64,000 bases of DNA from Ashinkailepas kermadecensis. Lineage: Eukaryota > Arthropoda > Thecostraca > Neolepadidae. The stretch spans positions 1,654,001 to 1,718,000 of the forward strand of contig JAOTOM010005181.1 of NCBI GenBank assembly GCA_034440615.1, in the 5' to 3' direction. Position 1 is the stretch's first letter. Every line of letters begins with the position of its first letter. Shown piece by piece: positions 15,630 through 54,326 of this stretch. The notes under the pieces are model-generated. The model did no database searches, was not told the DNA's origin, and saw only the letters and a list, made by a program, of their open reading frames with translations. The translations under genes and the position numbers were made by a program.

Positions 15630-16405
15630 TTCTTGAAAACGAATACAGAAAGAAAGCAAGATCTGCTTTTTACCATTTTTAGGGATTTATGCGTAGCCCG
15701 TATATTGACCAAATATGACCCCTGGCGACAGCATTATCAGTACTTTATCAGTGCATATAAGGTACGCTTTGGGCCATCCATGACCAGAGCTTTCTAACCA
15801 CATTTTTTTCATTTTATCTTACACACGTAAATCCGAAGTTATGGGATGACTTTCAAAAGCACTCCCTCGGCCTGGTCCGGGGAAGGTAAATTTGCCAACC
15901 AGCCCCGTGAGGTGTAAAGCCAGCTTCTTCATTGCATTGGACAGGACGGGAGGTGTTCATATTTTTCAAAGTTCACTATGTTCAATGTTCATAAGTTCCA
16001 AATTGGAAGCTAACTTCCAAAACAGCCCGCAAAGGAGGCGTTCATATTTTCCAAAGTTCATCATTTCCAAATTGGAAGTTAAGTTCCAAAACTTGGAAGT
16101 TAGCTGTCAATTTGGAAGCTAGCTAAGTCGGCTGGATCCATCATTGGTTCAATGGAAAGTTCCACTGAAATGGTATTAATTGATCTCTTTATGTACTGAT
16201 TTTATGCATATATTGCGACACAACAGGTGTCGCAATATATGTGTGTCGTGTGTCGTGGTGTTAAGTTTTATATAGTGATGCACCGAGAGCCTGTTTTATA
16301 TATGTTTTGTCTAGCCTGTGTCATCGGACTTCCCTCCACGCTCCTTTTCTTTTCATCCCTTGCTCCTGGCCCTTGCTCCAGCTTGACTTCATGGTCATTT
16401 TTCAG
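15630..16405. other. Likely intron or upstream sequence of the Fox gene
   Basis: No coding sequence recognised. It holds short TTCCAAATTGGAAG palindromic words (16000-16120) and a perfect hairpin at 16207-16241. It ends in a strong acceptor, TTTTTCAG, at 16398-16405. Confidence 0.4.
16207..16241. repeat. Perfect 15-bp hairpin with 5-base loop
   Basis: CATATATTGCGACAC, loop AACAG, then GTGTCGCAATATATG. All 15 base pairs match. It lies 165 bp upstream of the Fox exon. Confidence 0.9.
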
Positions 16406-16975
16406 GGCTGGCAGAACTCCATCCGTCACAACCTCAGTCTCAACGACTGCTTCCGCAAGCTGCCACGACAGAAGGGCAAGCCCGGCAAGGGCAGCTTCTG
16501 GACACTCGATCCCAAGTTCGCCGACATGTTCGAGAACGGAAACTTCCGGCGACGGAAGAGGCGCATGCGCTGCACAGCCGGTCGGAAGCCGAAGGCGGCC
16601 TCGTTAGTTGAGCCGCTGTCCGCAGAGCCGACACCACCGCCAGCTGCCGAGCCGACACCACCGCCAGCTGCCGAGCCGACACCACCGCCAGCTGTCGAGC
16701 CGACACAACCCAGTTCCGAGTCAACCGAGGCGGCAGCATTGGCCGAGTCGGGCGACTGTCGGACAGGGCGATTGGTGCCGGTTGCTGGCTCTGAGGTAGA
16801 CGGCCAACTGTCGTCAAACCCCTCGGTCGGTACTCGAACAGCCGAGTACGCCATGACCAGGCCGTCCTCCCTCTTCACCATCGAGAACATCATCAAGCCG
16901 GAACCGATGGTGTACACGACGGTATCATTGGCACCTGGGCACGCGCCAGAGCTAAAGCAAGAGCGGCAGGCATAA
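16406..16975 (+). CDS. Forkhead (Fox) transcription factor, 3' exon
   Basis: The exon opens in phase 0 after TTTTTCAG and reads [16 protein letters not shown], then [12 protein letters not shown] and [15 protein letters not shown]. This is the second half of a forkhead DNA-binding domain: recognition helix, wing 1 and basic wing 2 (residues 1-57 of the exon). A linker follows with three 24-bp repeats giving EPTPPPAA units (around residues 73-97). Near residue 152 [13 protein letters not shown] resembles the EH1 Groucho-binding motif (FSIENII type) found in FoxD, FoxC and FoxL1 proteins. The stop is TAA at 16973. The first half of the domain must lie on an upstream exon that I could not find in the window. 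The wing sequence is most like FoxL1, the EH1 most like FoxD or FoxC, so I leave the subclass open. It is a nuclear DNA-binding regulator by family. Confidence 0.85.
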
Positions 16976-28766: not shown

Positions 28767-29722
28767 TGATGAATTGCTGTTTAGGGGCACGTCGACAGCA
28801 AGGTCATTTTGTGCCCATAACAATGGTTAGAAAGAAACTAAGACGGTATGTCCTTCAAATAATCATTGGTGGAAGTAGAATATTAGTTCTCAAGGACGAT
28901 ATATAACATCAAAATTTGCCTGTCGAAGAAAAGTAAAGATGTTACCGGACGTCACGACATCCGAGTCGTCACTCAGAAGCATACGTAAGGAGTCGGTGTT
29001 CGCTCTTCCAAAGTACTGACGGCGCAGAGGTTCCAGTGTTGAACAAGCTACAATGACATGGTGTACAGTAAGCAGGGCAGAACATCGTGGGCATAAGGGT
29101 CGGTCATCTCCAGACACCAAGTAGCGGTGTGTGGCTAAGGTATGTCCGATTCTCAGACGGCAGAGCGCAACTTCTTCCCATCGATTTACCCGATGCGAGG
29201 ACCACCACCGCCCCAGCGTCGGCTTCAGGACACTTAGTTTGCTACACCTCGAACTCCAGACTCGCTGCCATTCTGATCGTATAAATGATGATATATACGG
29301 GTAGAGATCTCTTGGAGGAAGTGATAGAGAAGCGGTGCGCCCATTGCTGATAGCGTCCTTTGCAGCCATGTCGGCAGCTTCATTTCCAGCTACCCCAACG
29401 TGACTGGGGATCCAGCAGAAGACAGTAGTCTTACCCATGCCGGCTAACAATTCTACAACTCTTAGAATCTTGCGAATAAGTCGGTTATCTTGATTAAATG
29501 ATCGCATTGCTAAAAGGCTGCTCAGGGAGTCGGTGAAAACAACGTGCTTTGAGGTCGCATCATTTTGTATAAAACGAACAGCTTTCAAAATGGCATACAA
29601 TTCAGCGGTAAAAATCGAAGCATGTTTTGGTAGGCAGAAAGAGCCAGAGCCGGATCGACTGACATAGGAGCAGCCTACGCCAGATTCCGACTTGGAACCG
29701 TCCGTGTTTTTGGCCGAGGCAA
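28767..29722 (-). mobile_element. 5'-truncated LINE with RNase H domain
   Basis: One open frame (29722 down to 28890) starts inside an RNase H domain: TDGSKSESGVG, then FTAELYAILKAV, VVFTDSLSSLLAM and CWIPSHVGVAGNEAADMAAK, giving the catalytic D, E, D and D. A C-terminal zinc-like segment follows, CPRCSALLTVHHVIVAC. The 3' tail holds GGGCACAAAATGACCTTGC and ends ATTCATCATCA. This is the 3' end of an I- or Jockey-group retrotransposon that still has RNase H. The reverse transcriptase is missing. The frame is intact, so this insertion is fairly young. It sits inside the short-unit array of the surrounding element; direct comparison with 8330-8470 shows the array continuing on either side. Confidence 0.85.
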
Positions 29723-30664
29723 CGAAAATAACAGTCAGGACATGGGAAATCACTCTTGGATCCCAGCAATCGTTCTAAAAGCCCCCAAAATGTGTTGGGT
29801 ACCCCAAAACCTGTGAAGGCTGCTACTTGCGCTAGAGATCCCAACAAATGACGACGGGCCCAAAAATCGCACTTAGACCCCAAAAACGTCGCGTCGTTGC
29901 CTTTTAAAAAAACTAGGGGCTCAAAAAGTTACGCCGGAACTCCACCACAAGTCGCAGCTGGCTTCCCAAAAATCAATGCCTCCCGGAATGACACTGTGCG
30001 GATATAACAATTGCGTCCAAGACCACAAGAAACGTGTACGGCCCCGGAAAAGAAGCGTGTTGGAGCATCGAAAAAATGAACCGAGAGCCCGAAGAATCGT
30101 AACGGGGCCCAAAATATAGCGCAGGGGTTCACAAAAATATGACTCGACCCCAAAAAAATAACAAAAGGACTCCATCGAATTGACCCGAGCATGGGAAAAT
30201 TCAGAACAGGTCCCAAAGGAAAGTTCTCTGGAGGGACTTTCTACTCTGAAGGGTGCCATCGGCTGAGGAAAAACCCGTTGAGCAGCCGCAGTGGCGTCCG
30301 GGACATTTAAAAAATCAGAAAAATCACCAAAAATTGCGTCGAGTCCAGAAAACTGGCATCGAATCCCCCGGAACCACGCGTCCGGGCTCCAAAAGTCGAG
30401 CCAGGACCCCAAGTGACACCGGAACCTCCAAAATAAACCTCAAGTCCCAAAAATGTTCGTCAGGAGACTCAAATAAACACAGCTTGACCCAAAGAGCACA
30501 ACGGGAAGCCGAAAATGCACCGGGCCCTCCAAAACGTACCGAGTCTCGCAAAAAGCGGCAGGGTTGCAGCTCCAAATACAACTGTACCAGCAAATCCTCC
30601 AAACATGCGTTGCAGCTCCGAATACACACCGGGAGCTCCAAGAAAAAACACAGCGGGGAGATTC

Positions 30665-32324: not shown

Positions 32325-32680
32325 CTGGACGAGCGACGGGAAGGAGGCCGGCGGGCCGTGGGACTCCCCTGGACGAGCGACGGGAAGGAGGCCGGCGGGC
32401 CGCGGGATTCCCCTGGACGAGCGACGGGAAGGAGGCCGGCGGGCCGCGAGACTCCCCTGGACGAGCGACGGGAAGGAGGCCGGCGGGCCGCGGGACTCCC
32501 CTGGACGAGCGACGGGAAGGAGGCCGGCGGGCCGCGGGACTCCCCTGGACGAGCGACGGGAAGGAGGCCGGCGGGCCGCGAGACTCCCCTGGACGAGCGA
32601 CGGGAAGGAGGCCGGCGGGCCGCGGGACTCCCCTGGACGAGCGACGGGAAGGAGGCCGGCGGGCCGCGGGACTCCCCTGC
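32325..32680. repeat. 45-bp minisatellite, 8 units
   Basis: Unit begins CTGGACGAGCGACGGGAAGG and ends GGGACTCCCC, nearly perfect. It starts immediately after the target duplication of the 4.4-kb element. Since 45 is divisible by 3, open frames run through the whole array on both strands; I do not regard these as genes. Confidence 0.95.
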
Positions 32681-36366: not shown

Positions 36367-37139
36367 GGACGTGCGTCACCGTCACACTAGCAAACGGTGC
36401 CAGTGCAGACGGCCCGCGTCACCGTCACACTGGCAAACGGTCGTCGTGGCCGACTGGACGTGCAGCCGGCCCGCGTCACCGTCACACTGGCAAACGGTCG
36501 TCGTGGCTGACTGGACGTGCAGACGGCCCGCGTCACCGTCACACTGGCAAACGGTCGTCGTGGCTGACTGGACGTGCAGACGGCCCGCGTCACCGTCACA
36601 CTGGCAAACGGTCGTCGTGGCTGACTGGACGTGCAGCCGGCCCGCGTCACAGTCACACTGGCAAACGGTCGTCGTGGCTGACTGGACGTGCAGCCGGCCC
36701 GCGTCACCGTCACACTGGCAAACGGTCGTCGTGGCTGACTGGACGTGCAGCCGGCCCGCGTCACAGTCACACTGGCAAACGGTCGTCGTGGCTGACTGGA
36801 CGTGCAGCCGGCCCGCGTCACAGTCACACTGGCAAACGGTCGTCGTGGCTGACTGGACGTACAGACGGTCGTCGTGGCTGACTGGACGTGCAGACGGCCC
36901 GCGTCACCGTCACACTGGCAAACGGTCGTCGTGGCCGACTGGACGTGCAGCCGGCCCGCGTCACCGTCACACTGGCAAACGGTCGTCGTGGCTGACTGGA
37001 CGTGCAGACGGCCCGCGTCACCGTCACACTGGCAAACGGTCGTCGTGGCTGACTGGACGTACGGACGGTCGTCGTGGCTGACTGGACGTGCAGACGGCCC
37101 GCGTCACAGTCACACTGGCAAACGGTCGTCGTGGCTGAT
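36367..37139. repeat. 57-bp minisatellite, about 13 units
   Basis: Unit begins CTGGACGTGCAGACGGCCCG, continues through CGTCACCGTCACACTGGCAA and ends CGTCGTGGCTGA. Variants alternate AGAC/AGCC and CACCGTC/CACAGTC. Two shortened units near 36859 and 37058 (TACAGACGG, TACGGACGG) form a higher-order pattern. 57 is divisible by 3, so open frames are array artefacts unless shown otherwise. Confidence 0.95.
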
Positions 37140-37280
37140 CGACGCAACTGTTAACTCACAGTTCTGCCGAGTGTGTGCGTGTCTGTGGTTGCTGACACGT
37201 CAGTTGGTGCTGCACGCGTCTGGTACGGAAACATCGGAATAATCTGAACACGCTGTTTGTCCATGGACGCCTTAAGGCGC

Positions 37281-37812
37281 AGCCGAGCAACGGGTATCGT
37301 CACCGCCTCTGCGGGGACACTGTCCAGCAGACAGGCAGGTGCTCAGTGTAAGAAGCCAGGATGTGTCAGCCGAGCAGCGGGTATCGTCACCGCCTCTGCG
37401 GGGACACTGTCCAGCAGACAGGCAGGTGCTCAGTGTAAGAGGCCAGGATGTGTCAGCCGAGCAGCGGGTATCGTCACCGCCTCTGCGGGCACACTGTCCA
37501 ACAGACAGGCAGGTGCTCAGTGTAAGAGGCCAGGATGTGTCAGCCGAGCAGCGGGTATCGTCACCGCCTCTGCGGGGACACTGTCCAGCAGACAGGCAGG
37601 CGCTCAGTGTAAGAAGCCAGGATGTGTCAGCCGAGCAGCGGGTATCGTCACCGCCTCTGCGGGCACACTGTCCAGCAGACAGGCAGGCGCTCAGTGTAAG
37701 AAGCCAGGATGTGTCAGCCGAGCAGCGGGTATCGTCACCGCCTCTGCGGGCACACTGTCCAGCAGACAGGCAGGCGCTCAGTGTAAGAAGCCAGGATGTG
37801 TCAGCCGAATCT
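37281..37812. repeat. 87-bp minisatellite, 6 units
   Basis: Units recur every 87 bp from GTATCGTCACCGCC at 37293, 37380, 37467, 37554, 37641 and 37728. Few substitutions separate them. A Met-start open frame of 193 codons crosses the array on the plus strand (37257-37838), with a 29-residue repeat; no domain is recognised and I do not call it a gene. Confidence 0.95.
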
Positions 37813-38790: not shown

Positions 38791-38979
38791 TCAGCACGGC
38801 TCGGTGAGCAGCGTTATCTGGCACCAGCGGTAGGCGGTGGCGTCCGTGTTCCTGAAGAGCAGGCGGCCGCCGCTGCCAGTGTCCAGCAGACGCAGCAGGC
38901 CGTCCACCACGACAAGTCCAACGCCGATGCCGACCGCCTCCGTCAGGCAGAAGGCGCCTGACGTCACCCGGCCGATATC
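38791..38979 (-). CDS. POP1: POP1 exon 9 (C-terminus)
   Basis: Acceptor CTCTGCCCCAG precedes a phase-0 start. It reads [19 protein letters not shown] and later [15 protein letters not shown], then stops at 38791-38793. The VTSG-F------G-G pattern is the conserved last segment of POP1. Length 189 bp, 62 residues plus stop. Confidence 0.85.
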   Translation of the reverse strand, partial: DIGRVTSGAFCLTEAVGIGVGLVVVDGLLRLLDTGSGGRLLFRNTDATAYRWCQITLLTEPC

Positions 38980-41900
38980 CTGGGGCAGAGCGGGACTACG
39001 TCGGTGGTGTGCCGCCAATGGTGGCACGCCACGGCGCGGCGCGGTTGGGCGGGTCGGTACCGGACATTGCACGGAAGGGGTCCGGCTGCTCTAACGACAT
39101 TGCACGGAAGGGGTCCGACTGCTGTAACAACATTGTACGGAAGGGGCCCCGACTGCTCTTACGACATTGTACGGAAGGGGTCCCACTGCTCTAACAACAT
39201 TGCACGGAAGGGGTCCGAATGCCCTAACGACATTGTACGGAAGGGGTCCGAATGCCCTGACGACATTGTACGGAAGGGGTCCGACTGCTCTTACGACATT
39301 GTACGGAAGGGGTCCCACTGCTCTTACGACATTGTACGGAAGGGGTCCCACTGCTCTAACGACATTGTACGGAAGGGGTCCCACTGCTCTAACGACATTA
39401 TACGGAAGGGGTCCGACTGCTCTTACGACATTGTACGGAAGGGGTCCGACTGCTCTTAAGACATTGCACGGAAAGGATTTGAATGCTCTAGTGACATTGC
39501 ACGGAAGGGATTCTAATGCTCTAAAGACATTGCACGGAAGGGATCAGACTGCTCTAAAGACACTGCACGGGATGGATCCTAATACCCTGAAGACATTGCA
39601 CTGAAAGGATCGGAATGCTCCAAAGACCAGATGGATACCATTAAAAGTATGGGCACACGCTCACCACGAATGTTTTTTTTTCTCTTGGGAACATATGCAT
39701 TGCTGTGCAAGGTGACGTGAAGACTGCACATATTCTCATCCGCAACAATTTCACATCACAAAATGGGATTCCTAGTTTTGATTGCTTGCTACTTGACATG
39801 TACATGGAGCTTGACAAGCAGTAATCTACAAGAATCTGCAAGCTGTGCCAATCCAGAAACAAAATTGTTGCACATTTCCATTACGTGCCAGAATGTGGCA
39901 CTCTACCTTTCTCAAGCATTCATCATTGGTGGCACTTATTTCATCTCGGATAGCTAAACGTTAAAACTGTTCACACGAATGGGACGGGTGGAAAATTCAA
40001 AGGAACGTCACCACGGATCTGAAACCATTGAAAAGGTTCGGTTTTCTTAAGCAATCGCAGCAAATATTGACCAGAAATAAAATCCTTGGAACTACAAAAA
40101 AAAAATATTGAATGACAGCCGGTTGATAATGCAACCCTCAGATTTTGTTTAAAGTCTGTCTATGGGGCTATCTTACTAACTGAACACGATTATGCGGGTT
40201 TATGCTTCGGACCAGCAGTTTGTCCTGTACGGTGACGTAACCTCTCCAACCATCGATTTTCTAATTATATGCTCGATTTCACCTCAGTATCACTGATAAA
40301 TAAAGTGGAGCAGTGCACAAAAATCGCAAATACGGACGGGCGCGTGCGTGCGGCTCGGCGGCGGTCTGGCGGAGTCCGGATAACGTCGGAGAGTCGGTCT
40401 GTCGCCACTTCCATGCGCGGGTGTAGCCATTGTTTTACAATTGGGGGAGGGGGATAAACCAGGGACGAGGAGAGTCTGGGCAGGATAAGAGGTAAGCCCC
40501 CTACCACACCAACAAAAATCACGCCCACTTTTCGGCACGGTACATTTCAGCCACTTCATTTTCAAGGTCTGGTTTTCACATTTACTGTTGTTAAATCTGA
40601 AATTTTGGGGGAAAATGTTCCGCCTAAATAGGCAAGCTTCACTGCTTATCACTGCCTAAGTAAACTAAGTTCATGCAGAATGTGCTGGGCCCGATTTCAC
40701 AATCACCATGGAGCAATGCTGTAATTACATTAAACGTTACCACCTGTGACATGAAAACATAAAATATTGGACGATGGGTCGCGTTGTAGGAAATATGGTT
40801 AGTTATTTATTTGTGTTTTAGGGCGCCTCGACCCAAAAAATGTGATCATTTAGCGCTGATAACGTTCATTTAGCATGCCAAAATCTTATAGTGTTACTGA
40901 GATCTGAATAGTATATCTGGAGAGTATATGGAATGAAATCATATCGCTTTTAGGTACCTGAATATGTTACCGAAATGAATGATGTCCGAGTCATCTGCTA
41001 GAATGTCGCGATATGTTAAACGTCCGATCCTATTTCCGAAGAACAACCTTCGCAACCTTGGCAAGTGTTGGCACGAGTCAAGCACATGTCGCACCGCGTG
41101 GGTTTCCAGACAGCGGGGGCACTCGGGTCTGTCTTTCCCGCAGAGGAGGTATTGGTGAGTAGTGTGTGTGTGACCGGTTCGCAGTCTGCAGAGTCACCTC
41201 GTCACTCCTGGATCTGAGATGGCATGATGACCAGTTTCCAAGATGTGGCTTTATTGAATGCAGCTTATTGTTGGACTGTGCGTTCCAACTCCTAAGCCAC
41301 TTAGCATTCATGTAAGATAAGATTCCAGAGGTGTGGTCCCTGGCTGGAAGTGAGAGAATACGTGTTGGGGATCTCTGGGCTGTCCATTTAGCTGCGGAAT
41401 CGGCTCGCTCATTTTAGCCCCCCACTAAAAGCATCGACAAATACGTCGCCGTCCTTGGATTCCAACAAGAAGTACCCCGGCTGGTATGCCGCCACACTGC
41501 TGATTCACCTCACCTGGTCAGTAAGTGGCTGCGGGAAGACATCTATGGCAGACTGTACGCGAGTCGGAAATGGCGGGGACAACATTTTTTAATGACGACC
41601 GGAGGCATCTTGGACGAAATATTGTGATGAAATTTGGGCAAAAAAGAACTAAGAAAAACGTCCAAGTGACTACCAACGTTGTAGGAGTAGAAACGCGACT
41701 TGAAAACGAAACGGCGGGTCCGGTCGCCCAGATGAACTTAATGTTCGTACATGAACAACACTTCACTCGTGACATTTACACAACCAGTGTTCTTGCTCAG
41801 TGTGTCGAGGAAGGCCCTTCTGAGGAGTTATCAGTCCACAGCTGCCCGGGGTATCAATTCCTCGGCATCGTTAGATCAATACATCTAGAAAGGTTGAACA

Positions 41901-44900
41901 CAGGCCGAGTTTCTTTGATGCAGTCACTTGGTGATTGTTGGTGCATTATGAGAACGAGTGTTAATTTCCTCTGACGTAGGAAAAACCACATTGAATCAGC
42001 AACGAAACCGGTGCCCCATCGGGAATATGCACCCGCAACACTAGCCATTACTGTTGCTATTTTTGTCGACGGGACCTGAACAAATTCCTCAAGCCTAGCT
42101 GAGAGAGAATGTCTTATTGTAAATGCAACCCCCAGCGAAAAATATGTTAAGGGTGACAAAGATGAAGCTATTGATCATACTATAATAATAATCAATGACA
42201 ATGACTTAGAACATAATTGGTTAGAGCGACGGCCTGTATTGAACTCAGTCCCAGCAGGGCAGGGTTCAAGTCATTTCAACACTTGCATAGCCCCCGGTTG
42301 GGAGGGTAACCTGGGAACTGGCCTGATAGCCCCGGGTACGCGACAACGGAACAACGAATGTCAGTGCATTGGGGGCACGTTAAACTCTGGGGTCAGCATT
42401 CTTCCATTGAACTGGAATTCCCAGATTGGGTGGCGCCCAGGGTTTATGCAACAAATTCTGCTTAGCACAGGACCCTGGTGCCATGACAGCACCAAGGAAA
42501 TAACTTGATTATTTCTACTGCCTGGCTTTTCAAGCAGTGCTTCCGCCTCCACACATCATCGCCATCCTCACCGACCTCTCTGACCGGCTGGACGAGCTCC
42601 CCGGGCAGAAAGAGTCGCTCCATCTCAGTGCGTTGCTGTAGCCGCTCCGTGTCCAGCTGCTGACGCAGCTGCTGCGCCAGCTCCGGCTGGTGTCTGTGCC
42701 GGCAGCGCCGACGGCGCCGTTTTTCGCAGCGTTGTCGGCGCAGCCAGGCGGCGCGCCGCTCGACACGCAGCTGCTCGGCCTCGTCTCCAGCAGGCGGCTG
42801 GTGCGGCGCGTCTCCCGACGCCACGTCAGCAGAGGTCGGCAGGCACAGTAGCGCGCCGGGCTGCGGCACGCCGCCGCCGACGGCCCGCACGCGCACGGCC
42901 ACCACGTGCCAGGCGGGCGGCGGACAGGTGGGTCGGCCGCCGCCGCCGCGCACGGCTGCCGAGAGTGGGCGCAGGGCCGACTCGTCCCGGCACACAGTCA
43001 CGCAGTCGGCGGCGCCTGGTACGTGGCCAACAGCGCCACACACCAAGTGTCCCGTCAGTCGCCGCCACGGACACACGAACGGGTCAGGTACTCCCAGCTT
43101 AGCGTAGTTGGGCCGTTTGGCTGGCGGCCGCCTGGGGAGGTGACATCGATCACTGACGGCCGTGGGTAAGTCATAGACGGGTCACACAAGCCGGCATGTG
43201 ATACAAATACATATTATAAATATTTGCCATCGAAGGAAGATAATAGGACATAATCGGCAAACGTAAGTGCCATGCCAACCTATACAATGGTCATCTCCTT
43301 TCAGTGTACACTGCAAGCTTAACTTTGTGTACTGCCTAACAACATCACACAAACCTCAAATGGGAGGGAGCTTATGCTGACTGGACCTTATATGCAACTG
43401 TAAGATGGCGTTAATATTTGCTAACAGATGACGTAAATAAAACGCAAAATATTTCACCGGGATCAGAATATTTTGGCCATTGCATTTCCATCTCCACCAG
43501 AAGTTTCGAATTTGACACCCCGAGAATGACAGCAGTCGTGACCGGTCAATACAGCAGTGTCAACAGTGTCACAACCGGGCCGGTCAGACAAACAGCCGTA
43601 CCAGTAGTATCGAGTAGTCTAGTTAAGTTATTTGGTGGTGGTGGTGGATTGGAGTTTAGGGGCGCGTCGACTGCCAAGGTCATTTTGTGCCCATAACTAT
43701 GTTTACAGATAATCTATCGTGCTCTCACAGTGGTCAGTAATTTATTGTCCTTAGGATCGGCGATATATAACATCAAAGCGTGCTTGTTGAACGAAGGTAA
43801 AAATGCTCCCAGACGTCACGTCCTCAGGGTAGTTTCCTATTAGCGTATGCAAAGTAGTGTCGGCGTCCTGCTGTCCGAAAATCTGGCGTCGTAGTGGTTC
43901 CAAAGGTACACAACCTACTAAAACATGATACACGGTACGCGGGTGCGAACAGCGTGGGCACAAAGGTCGGTCATCACTCGTCAGTATTTGGGCTTAAGGG
44001 TACTTTGACCAGGTCATTTGCGTCATTTGCGCCCTGGTACCAAGTAGTCAATTCCTACAACTACAGTGATACCAAGTGAGCAAATATACTGGGGGATCGA
44101 TAATATTGCCAGTATGTTCAAATGCCCCGCACACAGCGACAGTAAGACTTTGGGGGGGCTTTAGGGCGCTTCGACCAGAATTGATCATTCGCGTCGAAAG
44201 TAAGACTAGTGCAGACAATAGGACACTGGTATTCGACTAGGCTGTAGACAGCATTACTACATTAATTATTTTTCTACCACCCAGTGAGTGAGTCTGTATA
44301 AATCAATCGAAGCAGAAATACTATCTAATACAACATAAATCACATCTACCAGCAGTGGCGGATCGCTGTCTGACCTGCGTACAAAGTACGCCCGGCGTGT
44401 TAGATTTTGCTCCACCAGAAGACGTGACTGGTTACTGTGGCATACAGCGTGGTTCGGTATCGCCGTGTGCACCTACTTGAAGTATTCGAGCCTGAGTCTG
44501 GCGCGTTCTTGGCTGTCCCATAGCTGTCCTGCCTCTGAGTCGGGATACTCAGCCGGGAAACGAAGCCGACCGGTTTCCAGAGCTGATGCACAAACACAAC
44601 TCAAGTAAAAAGGTTGTGAGCTCGAAGCTCACTAGTTGCTCCCACCTGAGCCCAGTCTAACTTTTCCTGGCAATCCAACACGTGACACAAGACTGTAACA
44701 TAAATTTCAAGGAACTGAGGAATATTGCTGCATACTGATACACAAACTCGGGTGATGTCCAGCACACTCAGGCGTTCTACCCACAATGTACACTATTAGC
44801 CAGGTCAGCCGGCCCAGTCTTTCCTGACTGGGATGGTCAAGCGTCACACACATGCAAACTCACTACCCTGACTACCGATCTTGCTCACAAGCACAGGCCC

Positions 44901-47900
44901 ATTAGCTGTGCTCAACATAACCTCAGTACTAGTTGCATCGTACTATTTGCAATATACAAACAACATAAACCACATACAACACTAAACCTTAACATGATGT
45001 AACTATTGCAGAGTCAAAGCACACCACTGCCGCAGAAATTGCGACATGACACTGTTTGCTGAGAATGCATATATAATAAAAATAAGCTTGTATTTGAATT
45101 TCAGCGCTCCTACACAGAAGTGATTATATAGACAGAGTGGATGGCTAGACAAGTGGAGAAAGATCGACCAGCCGCTATGGAAGAGTCGGGATAATGTGAC
45201 AGGATAGGGGAGCGCCCAGTCGGAAAAGTCAGCTCCACTCTTCACTTACCGATCCTGTCCGTCTCGCGGAGACCGCCGGCACGAGCGCCATGGTATTGCA
45301 GCGCCACCCAGAACGTCATGGCCCAGCCCACGGGCACCACCACGTCCCAGCCTGCAAACAACAGTGAGGACTTGCACCACCATGGCCCAGCCTGCAAACA
45401 ACAGTGAGGACTTGCACCATCATGGCCCAGCCTGCAAACAACAGTGAGGACTTGCACCACCATGGCCCAGCCTGCAAACAACAGTGAGGACTTGCACCAC
45501 CATGGCCCAGCCTGCAAACAACAGTGAGGACTTGCACCACCATGGCCCAGCCTGCAAACAACAGTGAGGACTTGCACCACCATGGCCCAGCCTGCAAACA
45601 ACAGTGAGGACTTGCACCACCACGTCCCAGCTTAGGAACAACAGTGAGGACTTGCACCACCATGGCCCAGCCTGCAAACAACAGTGAGGACTTGCACCAC
45701 CATGGCCCAGCTTAGGAACAATGCCAGTGAGGACTTGCACCACCATGGCCCAGCCTGCAAACAACAGTGAGGACTTGCACCACCACGTCCCAGCTTAGGA
45801 ACAACAGCCCAGTGGGGACTTACACCGTCAGGTCCCAGCCTGCGGACAATGCCAGTGGGGACTTACACCGTCAGGTCCCAGTCTGCGGACAATGCCAGTG
45901 GGGACCTCTCCCGGTCTCACAACCACCAGGTCTCATCTTGCAGAGAACACCAATGCTGACTTATACTACCACACATCTACTTGGGGATAATACCAATGGG
46001 GAGCTGGGGAGTTACATCACCAGATGCCTTGCTTTGCATTGTTTCTTATGGTGCAGGAACAGGTCTCAGATTCCAGCTTGGAGGCAACAATCCAGTGGCG
46101 ATTTACACATCAGGCACCAGCCTGCGGACAACGTAGTGGCGACTTACACCACTAGGTCCCACCCTGCAGACACCAATGGTGACCTACACCACAAGATTTT
46201 AATCTTTGAACAACACCAGGACATGCAGTTGATGCGCATGAACGTCGTGATCACATCCACTCCCAGGTCAGACGGATGCCCACGACTTCTATCTAATAAG
46301 AAGGGCAGGGGTCCCACCTCACTCAGTGGACTGGAGATACCATAAGACCGTCGACAGGGTGCGTCTCACCGACAGGTCTGTGGTTCTGCATCAGCAGTAC
46401 CGGCACCGGCGGCAGGCGCACCGCCTCTGGCGTCGCCGACGGCACCAGCAGGTGACGACGCGCCCCGTTCAGCTGATTGTCGGACACCTTGGTGGTGGTG
46501 ACCAGCCGCCGAATGGACTCGTCCCACAGAGGAGAGGCCTCCACGCCGGCCGGCAGCTCCGTGATCGGCTCGCCATTCAGCTCTGGAGAGGCAGATTCAC
46601 GGCGTCAGCGGTACTAAACGGACAACACCTGCCGTGGATTGGCAGTCACACTTGTGTGGCGCGTAACGTCACCGGCCTGCTCGGTGACTCCCACCAACGC
46701 ACTTCTACCTTGTGATTCTTACCACCACAAGCTTACCCTGTATAAACTGTATATACAGACCAGCCTTGTGATTATATCCAACACCAGTTTTACTCGCGCG
46801 AATCTTGCTACAAACCTATCCTGCACCATCATCACACACCTAGCATGTGTCTCTCGCCACAGACCTACCCTGCACTTCTCATCCCATTCCTGCCATGCAC
46901 CCCTCACCACAGACCTGCCTTGGATCTCTCACTGTATACCTACTCTACATCCCCCATCACGGACATACCATCCACCTTTCAAGCCGTGTCCTGAATTTTG
47001 TTTGTTTGATGAAATGGACTGGGAGGAGGGTGATGCCAAAAAAAAGCTAATTTATGTTTACAGAATGTGCAAATGTAGATGGATAACGCCAACTGATGAG
47101 CTACTTTTATGTCCTTTGTTGATTGTCTGATGGTAGTAATGATGTCATTAGTGTATCTGTTGCCTTTGCCAATCGGTAGTGCTGCTGCCAGAAGCCATGC
47201 ATATTTGCATATTTTAAAAGTTGCAAATCTCCACTCAAAACTAAAAGTTGCCTACAGCCAAAAAGCGCCTCATGCAAAAAAATTATGTCAAAAACCATTA
47301 TCCGTAAGTGTGGGTCCACTCAAATCCACTATCCTCCACTCAAACTTCAGAATTTCAGGGCACAGCTCTCATCACACATCTATACTGCACCAGGGGTGGA
47401 TCCAGGGATAATTTTGGTCATGTGGCTCTGCCCCATGAAAAGGTGGCGCCCATCTAACCGAGAAAGGTGGTCTTCCGAGAAGTCTCGAGTGCCTCTCCCC
47501 CCTCCCCCACTCAACTGACTTTCTTTTCAGCCAAATGTGCCCCTCAGGGGAAGGTGACCCCGGAGAGGAAAAGGCGACCCTCCGAGCGAGTGTCCCATGC
47601 TAATTCCTGGATCCGCCCTTGTCATGCACCCTTCGCCACATACTTGCCATCTGGCTCGTGGGTCGCCTTCCTCCGGCTATCAGGCACATGAGTACGCGGG
47701 TCGACGACAGTCATGCCCAGCACGCAGCCGGGGGGCAGCTCGCCGGGCGACTCGGCATCGGCCAGTATGCGCCACGTCTGCCGCTGCCGCTCCAGCTGCG
47801 CAGCAGCCGTCCCAGGTGGGTGGCATGGCCGCCACCCGCAGGCACGCCTGCAGCGCCGCCTGCGAGCCGGGCCCGCTCAGGCGGAACCGCGCCACACGGT

Positions 47901-50900
47901 CGCGCAGCAATGTCATCGTGACGTCATCGCCGGCGTAGCGGCTGATCAGGTGGAGTCGGCGCGGCAACAGCTTCAGCTGGTCGACGTTCTTGTTGGCGGA
48001 GGTGCCCGCTGCCGTCACGGCTGCCGGCGCGAGTTGAGCGGTGGCGGTCGGCTCGTCCTCGTCGCCGCGGTGAGTCGCCTGGTTGGGCTGGGCGGCTACC
48101 GAGGTGTCGCTAGGCGGCTGGGTCACAATGTCGTCTGGTACCTCGGCCGACTCCTCGGATACCGAGGTGTCGCTCGGCGGCTCGGTCACAACGTCGTCTG
48201 GTACCTCGACTGACTCCTCGGACGGCTCGGACGGCAGGCGGAACACTCGCACCAGCTGGTCCACCACGGCCTGGTAGCCGGCTGGGTGCACCCACAGCCA
48301 GAGCCGACGGCGGCCGTCAGCCACAGCGGGCCGCCACAGCAGCCCGGCTGGCGCCAGCGCGCGCTGAGGCTCGCCGGCCGACATCAGTAGCACGCGGCCG
48401 TGGTAACGGCCCGACAGCAGCCGGGCAGCACCGGCCGCACCGCCGCCCATCGTCTGCAGCCCAGCCAGCAGCGCCGCCTGCGGCCCGGCCAGCTCCAGCT
48501 GACACAGGTACGACACGTCCTGGAGCACACGACGCCCGGTCACCGCGACGGCCGCAGTTGGCGCTCAAACTAAAACTTAGTCGATGTGCTTTGTATCAGC
48601 AAGCAAGGCATGTAGCAAAATATGAACAGAACAAGCACTATAATGCCACAACAGATGCATCCGCGCACTGGAAGTGATAGTGAAATTCACATCATGCAGT
48701 TTGTAAATATATCCAAAACCAAGAAATCGAGGGATGCAATTTGTTTTGCATACACTCAAATAGGAACCTGGTGCACCAGTTTAACAAATAATTCGCAGGT
48801 TGAAAATTTGATAAGTCAACGACTCACAAATTTAAAAGTAATGGACGAAATGACATGTGAAAATCAACAGTGAGGCATGCAAAGCATATTTCCAAAGAAT
48901 GTCTTTATGCTCATAGTTGTGGCTACCTAAACACGTGCCACATACATGCATACACGAACGCACGCACGCACATACATTCAAACATACATGCATACATACA
49001 TACATACATACATATATAACTCAAACATACATACATACACATGCATACATACATACACATAGTCACACACACCAGATACGTGCTTCTTGCCAGCAACATG
49101 CCTCTGTTGCTGTGCCAAACAAGGTGTGAATCTCATCACTACCATACACACCACTGTTATTCGTTTTCGAAAACAGACAGCAGCGTGAGGCTAAGCCGTA
49201 CGCAATGGGGCGGGGGCGGCCGGCGCGTAACTGATACGTTGATTGATAATATATACGTGACCTAGGCAAACGCTCCTGCACTCTGGTATCTTTTGCTGTA
49301 AACAACATCAACTAAATTGGCTAGGTCTAGCTGTGCCATACTTCCTATCAACCATGCACATTAGTTAGACAGATGATACCAAAACGCAAAAAAAACAACA
49401 CATTTGTAGCACATTTGACCGCATCTGCCCCCAGAACGAATCGACTCCGGGTCATCAAATTCGCAAAAGAGCTCACTATTGTCCCCAGTCACCCCACACA
49501 TTTGATGTTTGTAGCTTTCATAGGATTCATATATGTTCGAGGTGGGGGGAATTCGTCCCCTTCAAGGGCGAGCGATTTTCATACATCCTCCAGTGCGCGT
49601 GCATAATATGGGAATACAAGTTAATTGAAAAAGGAAATTGGTATACAAAAGGCAGGGCTTCCTCACATTATGGAGTACCCTGACTGTGCCAAAAACCAGA
49701 CAGAAAATCACTTGGTAATGTGGTCATCCACACACTCAGCAGTGTGGTCTCACGTATTGTTCGTATAACCAAATCCATTTTCAGTTAGATGTCAGGTGTA
49801 GATGAAAATGTCAAATTATTGCTTTCGAAGATATACATCAAAGCCAGAAATTAGCATCACAAATTTGCACATAATTCCAATATCCTATTTCCTTTCCCAT
49901 TGGTACCGAACAGCGCTACAGAAGCGCCATCAAAGGCAAAACTTGATGGGGCAGTGCAAGATGGGATATAAAGAAAACTATTTATATTAGGACATACTTT
50001 CGTCTTTGGTTATGCATCGTTCTGCCCCAAAATTACAAAATTTGACATACTGTGCATAGCAATAGGGATATTAATATTGCACACGTGCCAGCATTCAGAC
50101 ACGTGTGCAATACTCCATGCATCAATCATTACTTAGACAGAGGTGTAGCACTTCACAACAGACAGTGATGTAGCACCTCATCTGCACTGGGCAGTAGTGT
50201 AGCACCTCACCTAAATCAGAATGGTGTAGCACCTCACTGGACCGGATAGTAGTATGGCATCTAAATCAGTGGTGCAGAGTATCACCTAGACAGGATGGCA
50301 GCACAGCACCTTGCCTGAATCAGACAGTGGTGTAGTCTCACCTAGACAGGATGGCAGCACAGTACCTCACTTGAATCAGACAGTGGGGTAGTTTCATCTC
50401 GACAGGATGGCAGCACAGTACCTCACCTGAATCAGACAGTAGTGTAGTCTCACCTAGACAGGATGGCAGCACAGTACCTCACCTGAATCAGACAGTGGTG
50501 TAGTCTCACCTAGACAGGATGGCAGCACAGTACCTCACCTGAATCAGACAGTGGTGTAGTCTCACCTAGACAGGATGGCAGCACAGTACCTCACCTGAAT
50601 CAGACAGTGGTGTAGTCTCACCGAGACAGGATGGCAGCACAGTACCTCACCTGAATCAGACAGTGGTGTAGTCTCACCTAGACAGGATGGCAGCACAGTA
50701 CCTCACCTGAATCAGACAGTGGTGTAGTCTCACCTAGACAGGATGGCAGCACAGTACCTCACCTGAATCAGACAGTGGTGTAGTCTCACCTAGACAGGAT
50801 GGCAGCAAGCACAGTACCTCACCTGAATCAGACAGTGGTGTAGTCTCACCGAGACAGGATGGCAGCACAGTACCTCACCTGAATCAGACAGTGGTGTAGT

Positions 50901-53900
50901 CTCACCTAGACAGGATGGCAGCACAGTACCTCACCTGAATCACAGTGGTGTAGTCTCACCTAGACAGGATGGCAGCACAGTACCTCACCTGAATCAGACA
51001 GTGGTGTGCCGTTGCTCGGTACGCCGCCCGGAAGCCTTTATCGGTGGCACTCTCTGGCAGTTGGTAGCCCCAGCGGCGCACCATATGGAAGCGGCGCGCG
51101 TGCCAGATGTGGGTCTCGAGCCAGACGTGCTCGCGCTGGCGCCGGTTGAACTCTTGCAGCAGGTGACGGGGGCGGCGACGGTGGCGCCGGCTCGGCCGCT
51201 TCGATACCTTTAGTTGAGAGGTGTCTCGCTAGAGGCACCGACGGCAGCGTCAGTGATGTTGCAAGCGTATTCGATCTGAAGTATTATATCACAAACGGTT
51301 GTGGCATCACGCTTATCACTGGAGTCAGAGTGGATCGGATCGTGACGTCAGGTAGGGCCGACCGCTGAAGGTAATCACCCATCCCTACACTAAACTATTG
51401 AGATTGCCAACTAGATCAGATAAGAAAACAACCACGACCCCTCCACCAGAAAGCCAGATGATAAACTAGATCCCAACAATCAGACGAGTAATACTATCAA
51501 CTCCGGGTTCAGCAACTAACAAACATCTACCTAATCAAGAAGAAAAACACTATCAGAATCTAGACAGCCTGGCACATGTCCATTGCCATGTGCACGGCAG
51601 CTCGACAAACAATATTTATTTATAAATTGGAATTAAAGGCGTATCAACTCCTATTGGTTATATAGTACCCAACCCGACCCAACACCAATACAGATAACAT
51701 CCACACATAAAGGCACTTACTAGGACAAATACACAACCGGAAAACAAATTCTCCGTTTTCATCAACAGGAACACCCAATCAGTATTGTTTGTTGTTATAA
51801 TTGTTTGTTATAACACACCTAAGACACATGATATGTGTAGAGATCAACATCGAAGCAATCAGCACCAAGCATGCATTTATAGTCCTTTTATATGGAGGGG
51901 ACCAGAATCTGTCATGAAATAATTACACATCTACAACAAAATGCCGAAGTACAATTTTCCGTCACTGATTACTTGAGTAGGTGCGAGGATTGAGTTAGAA
52001 GCGAGATGGTTGTGATCGGATCAGCAAGCATCAGAAGATCCACCAATCAGTGCCTGCCCACCGGCCACGGGGAGGCGACACGCGTCCGCGCCGGAGCAGC
52101 ACGCAGTCACACCTCACCAGCTGGCTGAAGGCCTCGCGCGACCGCACCGGCAGCCGCTTGGGCTCGTGGCTCATGGCCCTGCGCTGCATGTGGCGCGGCA
52201 GCCGCTGTGACGGCGTCTTGGTCCGATTCGGGTTGTCTGTGGGCACAGCAACCGTGTACCATCTCACCAGAGCTATTTCAGACAGCATGCTTAGCAAAGT
52301 GAGCTGGGGGCAAAAAGGATTTTGGTACCAAGCTGCTAAAATGGAAAATTGGAAGTAATGCAGATATATATCCTTAGTTTATCCGCCCCTTTCCCACGAA
52401 ATTCCTTGATATTACTACAGTCCTTCCTGAAAGATAGGATCTATCTTTATCATTTTCAAGGGCTAACAAGAAACACCATCCGCCCACGCGAACTTCTGTT
52501 GCTGTGGTCATGTGACTAGTGTTTATGTACGGACCTCACCGGCCGAATGTGGCCGACTGCGCCCCTCCATCTGAGGTATGAGTACCACGTGTTTGTTCAG
52601 TTTAACAGGATGCGACCATCATCCTGTGAAGGAAAGGCACTCGGCTACCTTTCAGCCATTTGCGACTCGCCGCCGGCAGCGGGGGATCGCGGCCAGGAGT
52701 CGCTGATGAGCTGTCGACGAGGTAGACTCGCCACACAGCTCTGAAGCCTAGTGCACACCAAGCCCGTTCTCAGCGTTACGAACGTCTGACGTTCGTCAGA
52801 CGTCCATGAAAAGCCTGCGGATATCCGTTTTCGACGGGCGCGGCATGCGAGGGCAACTTTGGAGCGACAATCTACGTCCGTTGGACGTATTTTTCACCAT
52901 GTAAAGCCTTAGATTTTCAGCGGCAGCTCTCTCTCTCTCCCCGTAACGTGTTTTTGGGTCCAGCCCCCCCCCCCCCCTAGGATTTGTTTATTGTGTGGTT
53001 CTCGACGCACTTTATGCACGATCACGGCTAATGGCGCAGCCCACACTGCTTCACCGGTGGGCCGGGGGATTGGGAAATGTCCCGAGTGGTGCGAGTGCTG
53101 AACTTGGGACCATTGGTGCCCCCTTAGGAAAACTCTGGCTGCGCCACTGGCTCCGTGACCCGATGCGACCTGGCAAAAAGGACACAAAACAAAAAATAAG
53201 AAGAAAAAAGTCAAAGATATCACATACTCACGATCACAACCCTGGACAATGAACGTAAATACCTTGTGAGCGGCAGACGCCCAGCTCGGGGGACCCAGCA
53301 GCCGACGCCCAGCTATGGGGACCCAGCAGCCGACGCCCAGCTCGGGGGACCCAACAGCCGACGCCCAGGTCGGGGGACCCAGCAGGTGCGCCGTGCCACC
53401 ACGCCATCGCAGCAAAATAATAACTGTGTGGCGGCCATCCGGCGGCCGCTCGGTCGACTTTGCACCATCACCATTCCTACCTTTACCAATAGATATATAA
53501 AACTTTTGCTTTCATATGATGCGCTATTGAATTTGCAATGTAGTCACAAAACTTCACTGCAATATCCCCGCCTGTGTATGAGATATTCTTGAGAAAAAAA
53601 ACTGGAGGGGTGGGCGAATTCCGCCCTTCCCCCATTTCTGATATGCATGTTAAGAAAACTCGGGTTCGTCAATTCGTTGGGCTGGTGCAGGCTGAGACCA
53701 GCGCTGGAAATCCCTCGATGTTCCGGAGTTCAGCTCTGGGGAGAAGTGGACACGTAAGCCCTTCTTCAGCGTTGCGAAATACAAAATGACCTTGACTGGT
53801 CACCACAGTTTCCTGGTTACGTGGGTCTGCAAAACAAGGTGTGCATGAAGAAAACAGCGCTTCATCCAGATTTTTAAAATGACGATGAGTTTCATAGAAA

Positions 53901-54326
53901 CTGAGTAAACACAGGATGTATTTGATGTGAGAGCTGCTGAGGTTGCAGAGGAGTCATTTGTTCATACTTGTAAGCAATTGTGGTCCCCTGGTGACAAAAA
54001 GTTCCCTCCTATGTTAGTGTATCAAAGTTTAAGTGTATCAAGCTAATGATTAATGGATGGTATGAATTAATGAGTGAGCCATCAATTCATTTCACTCCTT
54101 TTGGACACTGCAGTGATCTGCAGTGTCACACATTGAAGCATCACTACAAGTATTTAAGGCACAATAGCAAAAACACAAATAAAATAAGGGAAAAATACTA
54201 ACCGATGGCATCTGTGAGCTTTTTGATGTCTGACGCTCTCTCCACAGTAAGCTCAAGGAAGCTGATATTCTTGCCAGTCAGTACTGGCTCTGGATCATGT
54301 TCATCCATCATTGCCGAGGCTTTGTG
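38791..54326 (-). CDS. POP1: POP1, RNase P/RNase MRP protein subunit (nine exons)
   Basis: Nine exons on the minus strand join to a protein of about 830 residues: 54203-54326, 52118-52236, 50989-51207, 47648-48519, 46370-46582, 45250-45351, 44477-44582, about 42576-43131, and 38791-38979. Splice phases agree at every junction I tested (1, 0, 0, 1, 1, 1, 2, 0). POP1 is the large shared protein of RNase P and RNase MRP, which mature tRNA and rRNA precursors in the nucleus. Domain order is the family's: an N-terminal basic POP1 domain ([23 protein letters not shown]), a middle part with DVSY and [19 protein letters not shown], the POPLD domain ([19 protein letters not shown]), the NYAKLG/CPW segment and a C-terminal glycine-rich fold. 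Human POP1 is about 1020 residues, so this is shorter, mainly in linkers. One single-base frame break lies in exon 4. The first coding exon may not be the true N-terminus. The introns are full of transposons and two minisatellites. Confidence 0.9.
39066..39640. repeat. 33-bp minisatellite, about 17 units
   Basis: Unit GACATTGTACGGAAGGGGTC followed by CGACTGCTCTTAC. Units near the right end (39470-39640) are more diverged. It lies 87 bp from the exon-9 acceptor of POP1 on the intron side. 33 is divisible by 3, so open frames on both strands are expected. Confidence 0.95.
40425..40800 (+). mobile_element. Interspersed repeat, GGTGTAGCCA family, copy 2
   Basis: Collinear with 17155-17520 along its length (ACCAGGGACGAGG, CACTTCATTTTCAAGGTCTG, GTGCTGGGCCC, GAGCAATGCTGTAATTAC). 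It lies in POP1 intron 8. Confidence 0.65.
40805..41440 (-). mobile_element. LINE 3'-end fragment with RNase H end
   Basis: Starting near 41420, the minus strand reads [20 protein letters not shown], the last RNase H motif, then a frame with [20 protein letters not shown]. After a frameshift near 41170 the Cys-rich end is scrambled. The 3' tail with TCGAGGCGCCCTAAA ends at about 40805. Degenerate relative of the element at 28767. Confidence 0.7.
42217..42490 (+). mobile_element. tRNA-derived SINE, copy 2
   Basis: TTGGTTAGAGCGACGGCCTG (A-box half) and GGGTTCAAGTC (B box) are followed by the same body as at 4929-5262: GGGAGGGT, CTGGCCTGATA, GCACGTTAAACTC, CAGGGTTTATGCAACAA and TGCTTAGCACAGGACCCTGG. 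It lies in POP1 intron 8. Confidence 0.75.
42576..43131 (-). CDS. POP1: POP1 exon 8
   Basis: Acceptor CACCTCCCCAG, then one base completing the split codon from exon 7. It reads [20 protein letters not shown] then PWRRL, the conserved NY-KLG / CPW signature of POP1, a hydrophobic stretch [19 protein letters not shown] and a very basic segment ([12 protein letters not shown]). The 3' end is uncertain: phase 0 is required to join exon 9, met by GAG/GTCGGT at 42576 or by GAT/GTGTGG a little further, while the best-looking donor (GTCG/GTGAGG, 42572) gives phase 1. Confidence 0.8.
43652..43970 (-). mobile_element. LINE 3'-end fragment
   Basis: The minus strand reads [20 protein letters not shown] then [14 protein letters not shown] and [14 protein letters not shown], the same C-terminus as the 28767 element, followed by its 3' tail (GGGCACAAAATGACCTTGGC). 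It is heavily truncated at the 5' side. Confidence 0.8.
44155..44215 (-). mobile_element. LINE 3'-tail stub
   Basis: CTTTAGGGCGCTTCGACCAG then AATTGATCATTCGCG matches the tail phrase of the neighbouring LINE fragments. No coding sequence remains. Confidence 0.5.
44477..44582 (-). CDS. POP1: POP1 exon 7
   Basis: Acceptor TTTGTGCATCAG and donor AA/GTAGGT bound a 106-bp exon reading [20 protein letters not shown] then RLRLEYFK. The FP-(D/E)(F/Y)PD--AG pattern is conserved in POP1 between the POPLD box and the NY-KLG segment. Phases 1 (in) and 2 (out) fit exons 6 and 8 exactly (AA plus G makes the Lys codon). Confidence 0.85.
44583..45249 (-). other. POP1 intron 6
   Basis: Starts with a strong donor ATCG/GTAAGT at 45249 and ends TTTGTGCATCAG. 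AT-rich; no repeat recognised. Confidence 0.65.
45250..45351 (-). CDS. POP1: POP1 exon 6 (POPLD core)
   Basis: Acceptor TTGTTTGCAG and donor ATCG/GTAAGT. It reads [20 protein letters not shown] then [13 protein letters not shown], the most conserved block of POP1. The first 18 bases of this exon and its acceptor are copied repeatedly in the upstream minisatellite. Confidence 0.95.
45335..45930 (-). repeat. 40-bp minisatellite seeded on the POP1 exon-6 splice acceptor
   Basis: Units of 40-45 bp begin at 45351, 45391, 45431, 45471, 45511, 45551, 45591, 45631, 45671, 45711, 45754, 45794 and 45839. Read on the minus strand each contains TTGTTTGCAG/GCTGGG (or AAG/CTGGG in variant units) followed by a TGGTGGTGCAAG stretch, which is the acceptor and the first bases of exon 6. 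Degenerate units continue to about 46210. Confidence 0.95.
46370..46582 (-). CDS. POP1: POP1 exon 5
   Basis: Acceptor TGCCTCTCCAG, donor GTCG/GTGAGA. It reads [20 protein letters not shown], then [18 protein letters not shown] and PVLLMQN, matching the N-terminal part of the POPLD region (kisDqdLN---elLVPg and the IPiLLiQ strand). 213 bp with phases 1 in and 1 out. Confidence 0.9.
46583..47647 (-). other. POP1 intron 4, possibly of GC-AG type
   Basis: The only donor that keeps frame is G/GCAAGT at 47647, so the intron would start with GC instead of GT. It ends CTCTCCAG at 46583. A MITE (47391-47621) lies 26 bp inside the donor end. CACACCTACCCTGCAC-like degenerate repeats fill 46720-46960. 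Confidence 0.6.
47391..47621 (+). mobile_element. hAT-like MITE, CAGGGGTGGATCC family, copy 5
   Basis: Left end CAGGGGTGGATCCAGGGATAA, right end TAATTCCTGGATCCGCCCTTG. Flanks TACTGCAC (47383-47390) and TCATGCAC (47622-47629) match at 6 of 8. Length 231 bp. It sits in POP1 intron 4, very close to the exon-4 donor. Confidence 0.8.
47648..48519 (-). CDS. POP1: POP1 exon 4 (one frameshift)
   Basis: Acceptor GTGTGCTCCAG, phase 0. It reads [46 protein letters not shown] and, in another frame, [19 protein letters not shown], all POP1 landmarks. The frame switch falls between 47820 and 47785, after AAMPPTW; one surplus base there accounts for it (872 bp observed; the flanking phases need a length of 1 modulo 3). 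The linker holds an in-frame tandem duplication of 21 residues ([20 protein letters not shown] type, twice). Sequencing error is the simplest reason for the shift; a broken gene is the other. Confidence 0.85.
48520..50988 (-). other. POP1 intron 3
   Basis: Contains CATA microsatellite (48940-49065) and a 56-bp minisatellite that begins at the exon-3 donor. Remaining sequence is AT-rich with no recognised feature. Confidence 0.65.
48940..49065. repeat. (CATA)n-rich microsatellite
   Basis: Interrupted CATACATACATA with CACA and GCAC variants. Confidence 0.9.
50170..51003 (-). repeat. 56-bp minisatellite seeded on the POP1 exon-3 splice donor
   Basis: About 12 near-perfect units plus degenerate ones at the left. 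Read on the minus strand each unit has CTGATTCAG/GTGAGG, identical to the end of exon 3 and its donor, then TGCTGCCATCCTGTCTAGG. Regular units have the donor near 50425, 50477, 50533, 50589, 50646, 50701, 50757, 50818, 50874 and 50930, with the real one at 50989. Confidence 0.95.
50989..51207 (-). CDS. POP1: POP1 exon 3
   Basis: Acceptor CAACTAAAG, donor ATTCAG/GTGAGG, 219 bp, phase 0 at both sides. It reads [20 protein letters not shown], then [16 protein letters not shown] and [11 protein letters not shown], the hallmark of the POP1 N-terminal domain. Joined to exon 4 it gives [11 protein letters not shown], matching the family's CLLQD-SYYC. Confidence 0.95.
51208..52117 (-). other. POP1 intron 2
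   Basis: Donor CTG/GTGAGG after exon 2. AT-rich with no repeat recognised. Confidence 0.6.
52118..52236 (-). CDS. POP1: POP1 exon 2
   Basis: Acceptor TGTGCCCACAG, donor CAGCTG/GTGAGG, 119 bp. It reads [19 protein letters not shown], one of the best-conserved POP1 motifs, ending REAFSQL. Phase 1 in, 0 out. Confidence 0.95.
53029..53147. mobile_element. Candidate small MITE with GGCGCAGCC inverted ends
   Basis: Left ATGGCGCAGCC and right GGCTGCGCCACTG form an inverted repeat of about 11 bp enclosing about 100 bp with the GGTGCCCCCTTAGG box. No target duplication was found. Confidence 0.4.
53265..53390. repeat. 30-bp tandem repeat, 4 units
   Basis: Unit CAGCCGACGCCCAGCTCGGGGGACC with small variants. 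It produces GTQQPTP-like frames that are not genes. Confidence 0.9.
54203..54326 (-). CDS. POP1: POP1 exon 1 as seen (near N-terminus)
   Basis: Acceptor-like TTTTGTCTACAG precedes it, so it is probably the second exon of the gene. It reads [14 protein letters not shown] then [20 protein letters not shown], matching the POP1 segment before the RLPRHMRRRAMSH motif. Translation could start at the tandem Met codons at 54306-54311 if the acceptor is not used. Upstream exon not found. Confidence 0.75.

What the first reader, a model, noticed from the sequence alone, without database searches (positions are those of the whole stretch)
50170..51003. Minisatellite built from a splice donor in the same gene
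The 56-bp units downstream of POP1 exon 3 each contain CTGATTCAG/GTGAGG, identical to the exon's end and donor. About eleven decoy donors follow the real one. Finding a donor-seeded and an acceptor-seeded array in one gene is unlikely by chance and suggests a common process.
Basis: partly seen in the sequence, partly recalled or inferred. Interest (0 to 1): 0.78.

Follow-up and report, generated by a model that had tools for sequence, protein, structure and literature searches.

The report
Tandem copies of POP1 splice donor
In what looks like a barnacle genome, the end of one exon of the housekeeping gene POP1, together with the signal that starts the next intron, has been copied head to tail more than a dozen times into that intron; the same kind of array was known from lancelets and one human gene, and here a second array copies the start of another exon of the same gene.

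Summary
On the minus strand, POP1 exon 3 ends ACACCACTGTCTGATTCAG/GTGAGG (exon 51228-50989, donor from 50988). Those 19 exon bases and 37 intron bases head a 56-bp array of 13 units (51007-50278), followed by about six decayed ~27-bp copies to ~50132. Each unit is a dimer with two donor-like sites: 24 downstream donor-like sites in all, 10 of them equal to the real CAG/GTGAGG. POP1 of human and barnacles keeps the exon's last residues (human RCLLQ, barnacle HHCLVQ), so the exon seeded the array. The acceptor-seeded array is real too: 40-bp units before exon 6 (45351) carry the intron end plus 18 exon bases. The other 14 of 16 boundaries tested have no local copies. In both arrays, identity to the functional copy falls with distance from the exon. 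Best named protein matches are barnacles. The architecture is that of lancelet 'mirages' and, for donors, the human IFI6 minisatellite: a new member of a known kind, in what my limited searches suggest is a new phylum. Most likely a neutral by-product: duplications across a boundary are tolerated because extra copies fall inside the intron. No RNA or orthologous DNA could be examined.

The parts
50989..51228 (-). POP1 exon 3 (240 nt), ends ...HHCLIQ at 50989
   Evidence: tblastn with Amphibalanus POP1, 85% identity, to 50989; POP1_N domain; human POP1 alignment across the junction
50983..50988 (-). functional 5' splice site of intron 3, GTGAGG (inferred from protein homology, no RNA)
   Evidence: protein junction LIQ|DVSY matched in homologs; strongest U1 pairing of the eight POP1 donors, -11.6 kcal/mol against -4.1 to -9.0 (exon 4 donor)
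50278..51007 (-). donor-seeded array: 13 dimers of 56 bp (29-nt half A with CAG/GTGAGG, 27-nt half B with CTAG/GTGAGA); the first half A lies partly in exon 3
   Evidence: TRF period 56, 13.0 copies, 95% matches; unit segmentation
50132..50277 (-). decayed ~27-bp copies of half A at the exon-distal end (about six; cut by hand)
   Evidence: 52-86% identity to the exon copy
45334..45794 (-). acceptor-seeded 40-bp array; most units carry TTGTTTGCAG plus GCTGGGCCATGGTGGTGC
   Evidence: TRF; segmentation
45795..46163 (-). older, decayed units of the acceptor array (six, irregularly spaced)
   Evidence: 55-76% identity to the functional unit
45250..45351 (-). POP1 exon 6, starts GCTGGGACGTGGTGGTGCC = (G)WDVVVP
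   Evidence: tblastn with Amphibalanus (GWDLLLP) and Pollicipes (GWDLVLP) POP1; the human sequence shown reads GWDVLLP
38794..54311 (-). POP1 gene, nine coding exons (about 54311-54203, 52236-52118, 51228-50989, 48519-47648, 46582-46370, 45351-45250, 44582-44477, 43131-42576, 38979-38794)
   Evidence: tblastn of P0001 and P0003; boundaries set by hand from splice signals and frame

Best explanation
This is a boundary minisatellite. A tandem duplication once copied the last 19 nt of POP1 exon 3 with the first bases of intron 3 into the intron, giving a ~28-bp repeat with one donor per unit (the distal fossils are shown; the order of events is inferred). Two neighbouring copies, one of which had diverged, then became a 56-bp dimer that was amplified by unequal exchange or slippage, partly in blocks (two dimers four apart share one change). 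The functional donor is the exon-proximal one; it stays intact because POP1 needs it, and the extra copies are spliced out with the intron. A separate array arose the same way at the exon 6 acceptor. Such arrays persist because a duplication across a boundary leaves its surplus copies in the intron, whereas one inside an exon would change the protein. Splicing presumably uses the donor closest to the body of exon 3 (inferred); using any decoy tested would bring a premature stop codon.
For: Exact 19-nt exon identity and unit anatomy. Conserved protein across both junctions, so the exons are the source: HHCL[I/V]Q|DVSY and G|WD...GW, with matching phase 1 on exons 5 and 6. Identity to the functional copy falls away from the exon in both arrays although they lie on opposite sides of their exons: Spearman 0.80 over 18 donor units, -0.81 over 18 acceptor rows. 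Half-units A and B are related (3 of 2000 shuffles score as high). The 56-bp and 40-bp units match nowhere else in the window. All 24 decoy donors examined give a premature stop. [quoted passage not shown]
Against: Ten decoys have the same nine donor bases and hence the same U1 pairing as the real donor, so preference for the first is assumed and no RNA was seen. No unusual RNA folding was found that could hide the decoys (two donor segments, z 0.93 and 0.94; acceptor segment 0.26). No orthologous intron was available to date the array. An assembly error in copy number cannot be excluded.
Confidence: 0.8

Rival explanations
1. The array is functional: downstream donors are used in regulated amounts, giving isoforms or stop-codon transcripts that tune POP1 level, as downstream repeat units of the human IFI6 minisatellite are used as donors.
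For: 10 decoys keep the full CAG/GTGAGG; each of 24 decoy sites leads to a stop; IFI6 precedent (PMC4526556, passages and reference list). In the acceptor array two decoys ending in AG (45471, 45591) would add 40 or 80 residues in frame without a stop.
Against: Decoys decay with distance; the half-A donor is altered in 2 of 13 dimers and the half-B site in 4 of 13, as drift predicts. Lancelet data suggest no interference with splicing. No RNA evidence either way.
Confidence: 0.1
2. A special process acts on splice junctions (for example R-loops at donors, or RNA-templated DNA copies), so that donor and acceptor arrays share a cause beyond ordinary tandem duplication.
For: Two boundary arrays among five intronic arrays of one gene, 0.9% to 2.2% by random placement; the donor hit is the strongest of eight by U1 pairing.
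Against: 14 of 16 boundaries show nothing; three of five arrays are not at boundaries; selection alone enriches for boundary copies. Post hoc.
Confidence: 0.15
3. The repeat was intronic first and the exon end was captured from it (splice-site shift into the array).
For: The exon copy is identical to most units.
Against: The exon's last residues match human and barnacle POP1, so they predate the array.
Confidence: 0.03
4. Copy number or the whole array is an assembly artefact.
For: Exon 4 carries an apparent frame break, so the assembly or the gene may have a flaw.
Against: Units differ by point changes and indels in a graded pattern and end in decayed fossils, which an assembly error would hardly create.
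Confidence: 0.04

Closest known systems
[quoted passage not shown]
   Same: Unit spans a boundary, both 5' and 3' boundaries can be hit, many copies keep AG/GT signals, units at the cluster edge escape homogenisation (PMC3087553 passages; PMC3902484 passages)
   Different: Reported there in lancelets; here the gene's best named matches are barnacles. Unit is a 56-bp dimer with two donor-like sites, and fossils show the earlier monomer. No RT-PCR or polymorphism data here
[quoted passage not shown] 1995)
   Same: Tandem repeat supplying several donors (title in the reference list and one sentence seen in PMC4526556; the original is not held)
   Different: There two downstream repeat units are said to be used as donors; here use is untested. 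Unit size of IFI6 was not seen in any call
Intron gain by tandem genomic duplication
   Same: Starts from a tandem duplication in a gene (PMC4974935, title and abstract start in a listing; that it copies splice signals is recalled)
   Different: No new intron is seen here; the copies lie in an existing intron

Membership tests
Boundary minisatellite of the 'mirage' type | tandem unit spans an exon/intron boundary and includes exon sequence | tested here: met
   19 nt of exon 3 in the units; about 18 nt of exon 6 in the acceptor units
Boundary minisatellite of the 'mirage' type | many but not all copies keep AG/GT splice signals | tested here: met
   CAG/GTGAGG in 11 of 13 dimers, the functional one included; of 17 upstream acceptor copies seen, 13 were examined and 10 of these end in AG
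Boundary minisatellite of the 'mirage' type | normal splicing is not disturbed | not testable with these tools
   no RNA data
Boundary minisatellite of the 'mirage' type | length instability between alleles | not testable with these tools
   one sequence only
IFI6-type donor minisatellite | downstream units serve as alternative donors in mRNA | not testable with these tools
   no RNA data; all 24 decoys examined would give a stop
Introner or other dispersed element | copies at other places | tested here: inconclusive
   none of the units elsewhere in the 64-kb window; the genome search did not complete

The most novel reading that the evidence does not exclude
Splice-junction minisatellites are a recurrent product of a mutational bias in barnacles, arisen independently of those in lancelets, with arrays at different POP1 boundaries in different barnacles, supplying raw material for new isoforms and introns.
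Probability: 0.25. Interest if true: 0.65.

Novelty: new member of a known kind. Interest (0 to 1): 0.45.

Why it matters
It is a natural test of how the spliceosome chooses among eleven donors with the same nine core bases, with the answer readable from ordinary RNA-seq. It also extends boundary minisatellites to what appears to be an arthropod, which makes a genome-wide count worthwhile: if such arrays exceed a placement model with selection, junctions are mutational hot spots; if not, the pattern is selection sparing harmless duplications.

Tried and rejected
Amphioxus as the source was my first guess from the mirage literature; the protein search gave barnacles. A splicing role through RNA structure: no fold better than its shuffles in three segments. 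The 33-bp array 39063-39627 as a third boundary array: exon 9 starts at 38979, 84 nt away, and its acceptor probe finds no copies. Generality within POP1: 14 of 16 boundaries negative, lowest p 0.065 and 0.095 (at most 1500 nt of the neighbouring intron was searched, and the probes for the donors of exons 2 and 4 lay 3 nt off the boundary later chosen). The first placement test left out the weak 25-bp array 46810-46932; repeated with it, which weakens the result. The U1 value printed for the exon 4 donor was for a site shifted by one base; one search gives the right one. The distal-fossil alignment score (218 against a shuffle maximum of 40 in 60) included one intact dimer, so I rely. Units of both arrays were cut with patterns chosen by eye.

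Papers: the searches showed no barnacle or crustacean case recognisable from the listings; some searches listed 10 of 31, 8 of 9 and 10 of 43 papers. Passages only were read of PMC3087553, PMC3902484, PMC12783039 (earthworm intronic repeats; the passages seen report no repeats across exon boundaries) and PMC4526556. Two central papers (PMC117041, PMC306954) are not held.

Full report
What is there. On the minus strand POP1 runs from about 54311 to 38794 in nine coding exons. Exon 3 (51228-50989) ends ...ACACCACTGTCTGATTCAG and intron 3 starts GTGAGGTACT. TRF finds a 56-bp array at 50278-51007, 13.0 copies, 95% matches. Its first copy is the exon end and donor themselves: the last 19 exon bases recur exactly at nine further places, and nearly so at others.

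Finer anatomy. The 56-bp unit is a dimer of a 29-nt half (ACACCACTGTCTGATTCAGGTGAGGTACT) and a 27-nt half (GTGCTGCCATCCTGTCTAGGTGAGACT) that resemble each other (3 of 2000 shuffles as good). Beyond the 13 dimers lie about six decayed copies of the first half alone, to ~50132, at 52-86% identity. So the array began as a ~28-bp monomer and was later amplified as a dimer (inference). The third and seventh dimers share a TCGGTGAG change, which points to block duplication of four dimers (inference). Identity to the exon copy falls with distance (Spearman 0.80, p 6e-5, 18 units, the functional one left out).

Is the exon the source? Joined exons 3 and 4 match human POP1 at E=6e-37 with NRCLLQ|DLSYYC opposite HHCLIQ|DVSYLC. 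Amphibalanus and Pollicipes POP1 have HHCLVQ|DVSYLC. The repeated exon residues are therefore old protein, not captured repeat.

The acceptor array. Exon 6 starts at 45351 with GCTGGGACGTGGTGGTGCC, (G)WDVVVP, opposite barnacle GWDLLLP and GWDLVLP; the human sequence shown reads GWDVLLP there, though my query in that call lacked these residues. Exon 5 ends at 46370, phase 1, so the reading fits. Upstream, 40-bp units repeat TTGTTTGCAG plus GCTGGGCCATGGTGGTGC; older units reach 46163. Identity falls with distance from the exon (rho -0.81, p 5e-5, 18 rows, the functional one included). Nine units read GGGCCATG where the exon and two units (45631, 45794) read GGGACGTG, which suggests that the exon copy is held by the protein while the array drifts (inference).

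How unusual. Of 16 POP1 boundaries tested with 30-nt probes against up to 1500 nt of the neighbouring intron, only these two have copies beyond 200 shuffles (scores 29 against a maximum of 14, and 24 against 15); the lowest p among the other 14 is 0.065. Random placement of the gene's five intronic arrays gives two or more reaching 1-30 nt into an exon in 0.9% of trials, or 2.2% when greater overlap is excluded. This is a modest, post hoc excess.

Consequences for splicing. By pairing with the U1 5' end (recalled sequence) the exon 3 donor is the strongest of the gene's eight, and ten decoys have the same nine bases. Using any of 24 downstream GTGAG or GTAAG sites gives a stop: for 23 of them about ten codons past the exon, within the first dimer, and for one after a frameshift in exon 4. 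For the acceptor array, 13 of 17 upstream copies were examined: 10 end in AG, and two of these would be in frame without a stop. No special RNA structure was found. The expected outcome is use of the exon-proximal sites, as the lancelet data suggest (PMC3087553, passages), but nothing here tests it.

Whose genome. Of 131 protein hits (120 listed), the best are the barnacles Amphibalanus amphitrite (53% over the whole query) and Pollicipes pollicipes (52% over 40% of it); most of the others that align over most of the query, insects, molluscs and vertebrates, stand near 28-36%. In their three longest aligned pieces those two barnacles are 56-81% identical to each other. I read the window as barnacle; the species is not identified, and the own-genome search did not complete.

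Known kind. Lancelet genes carry the same thing under the name mirages, at both 5' and 3' boundaries, and PGBD5 has two in one gene. The human IFI6 minisatellite supplies multiple donors (original paper not held). I recognised no crustacean report in the searches named in Tried and rejected. Hence: new member of a known kind, in what appears to be a new phylum.

Leads. P0014, a POP1 fragment of unnamed source 77% identical to Amphibalanus over 343 residues, runs past the exon 8 end into VSRTIGL VSRTTGL VGGTTGV..., a 21-nt repeat whose units begin with GTN, as if the donor of exon 8 were followed by a donor-like array (protein only). P0002, a second Amphibalanus POP1 model, departs from P0001 just after GWDLLL, about where the exon part of our acceptor unit ends; a plain gene-model error would do as well. 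Both need DNA.

Noticed in passing
47804-47818 (-): Apparent frame break in POP1 exon 4: tblastn with barnacle POP1 changes frame between 47818 and 47804. Assembly error or real; not pursued.
   Followed up: no
48093-48222 (-): 63-bp, 2.1-copy in-frame repeat inside exon 4 coding sequence.
   Followed up: no
47642-47648 (-): Intron 4 fits best as a GC-AG intron (CAGATG/GCAAGT), judged by hand from frame and protein match.
   Followed up: partly
39063-39627: 33-bp array (about 17 copies) ending 84 nt before exon 9, not spanning the boundary.
   Followed up: yes
46810-46932: Weak 25-bp array (5.0 copies, 65% matches) in POP1 intron 4, away from boundaries.
   Followed up: partly
36403-37808: 57-bp and 87-bp arrays side by side downstream of POP1.
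   Followed up: no
9817-10275; 14524-14959; 32325-32679: Further minisatellites (19, 56 and 44 bp); gene models near them were not worked out.
   Followed up: no
16265-16972 (+): Reading frame with part of a forkhead domain (Pfam Forkhead E=6e-18) and a 24-bp repeat at 16625-16710.
   Followed up: partly
28893-29774 (-): RNase H domain, probably of a retroelement (Pfam RNase_H E=5e-8).
   Followed up: no
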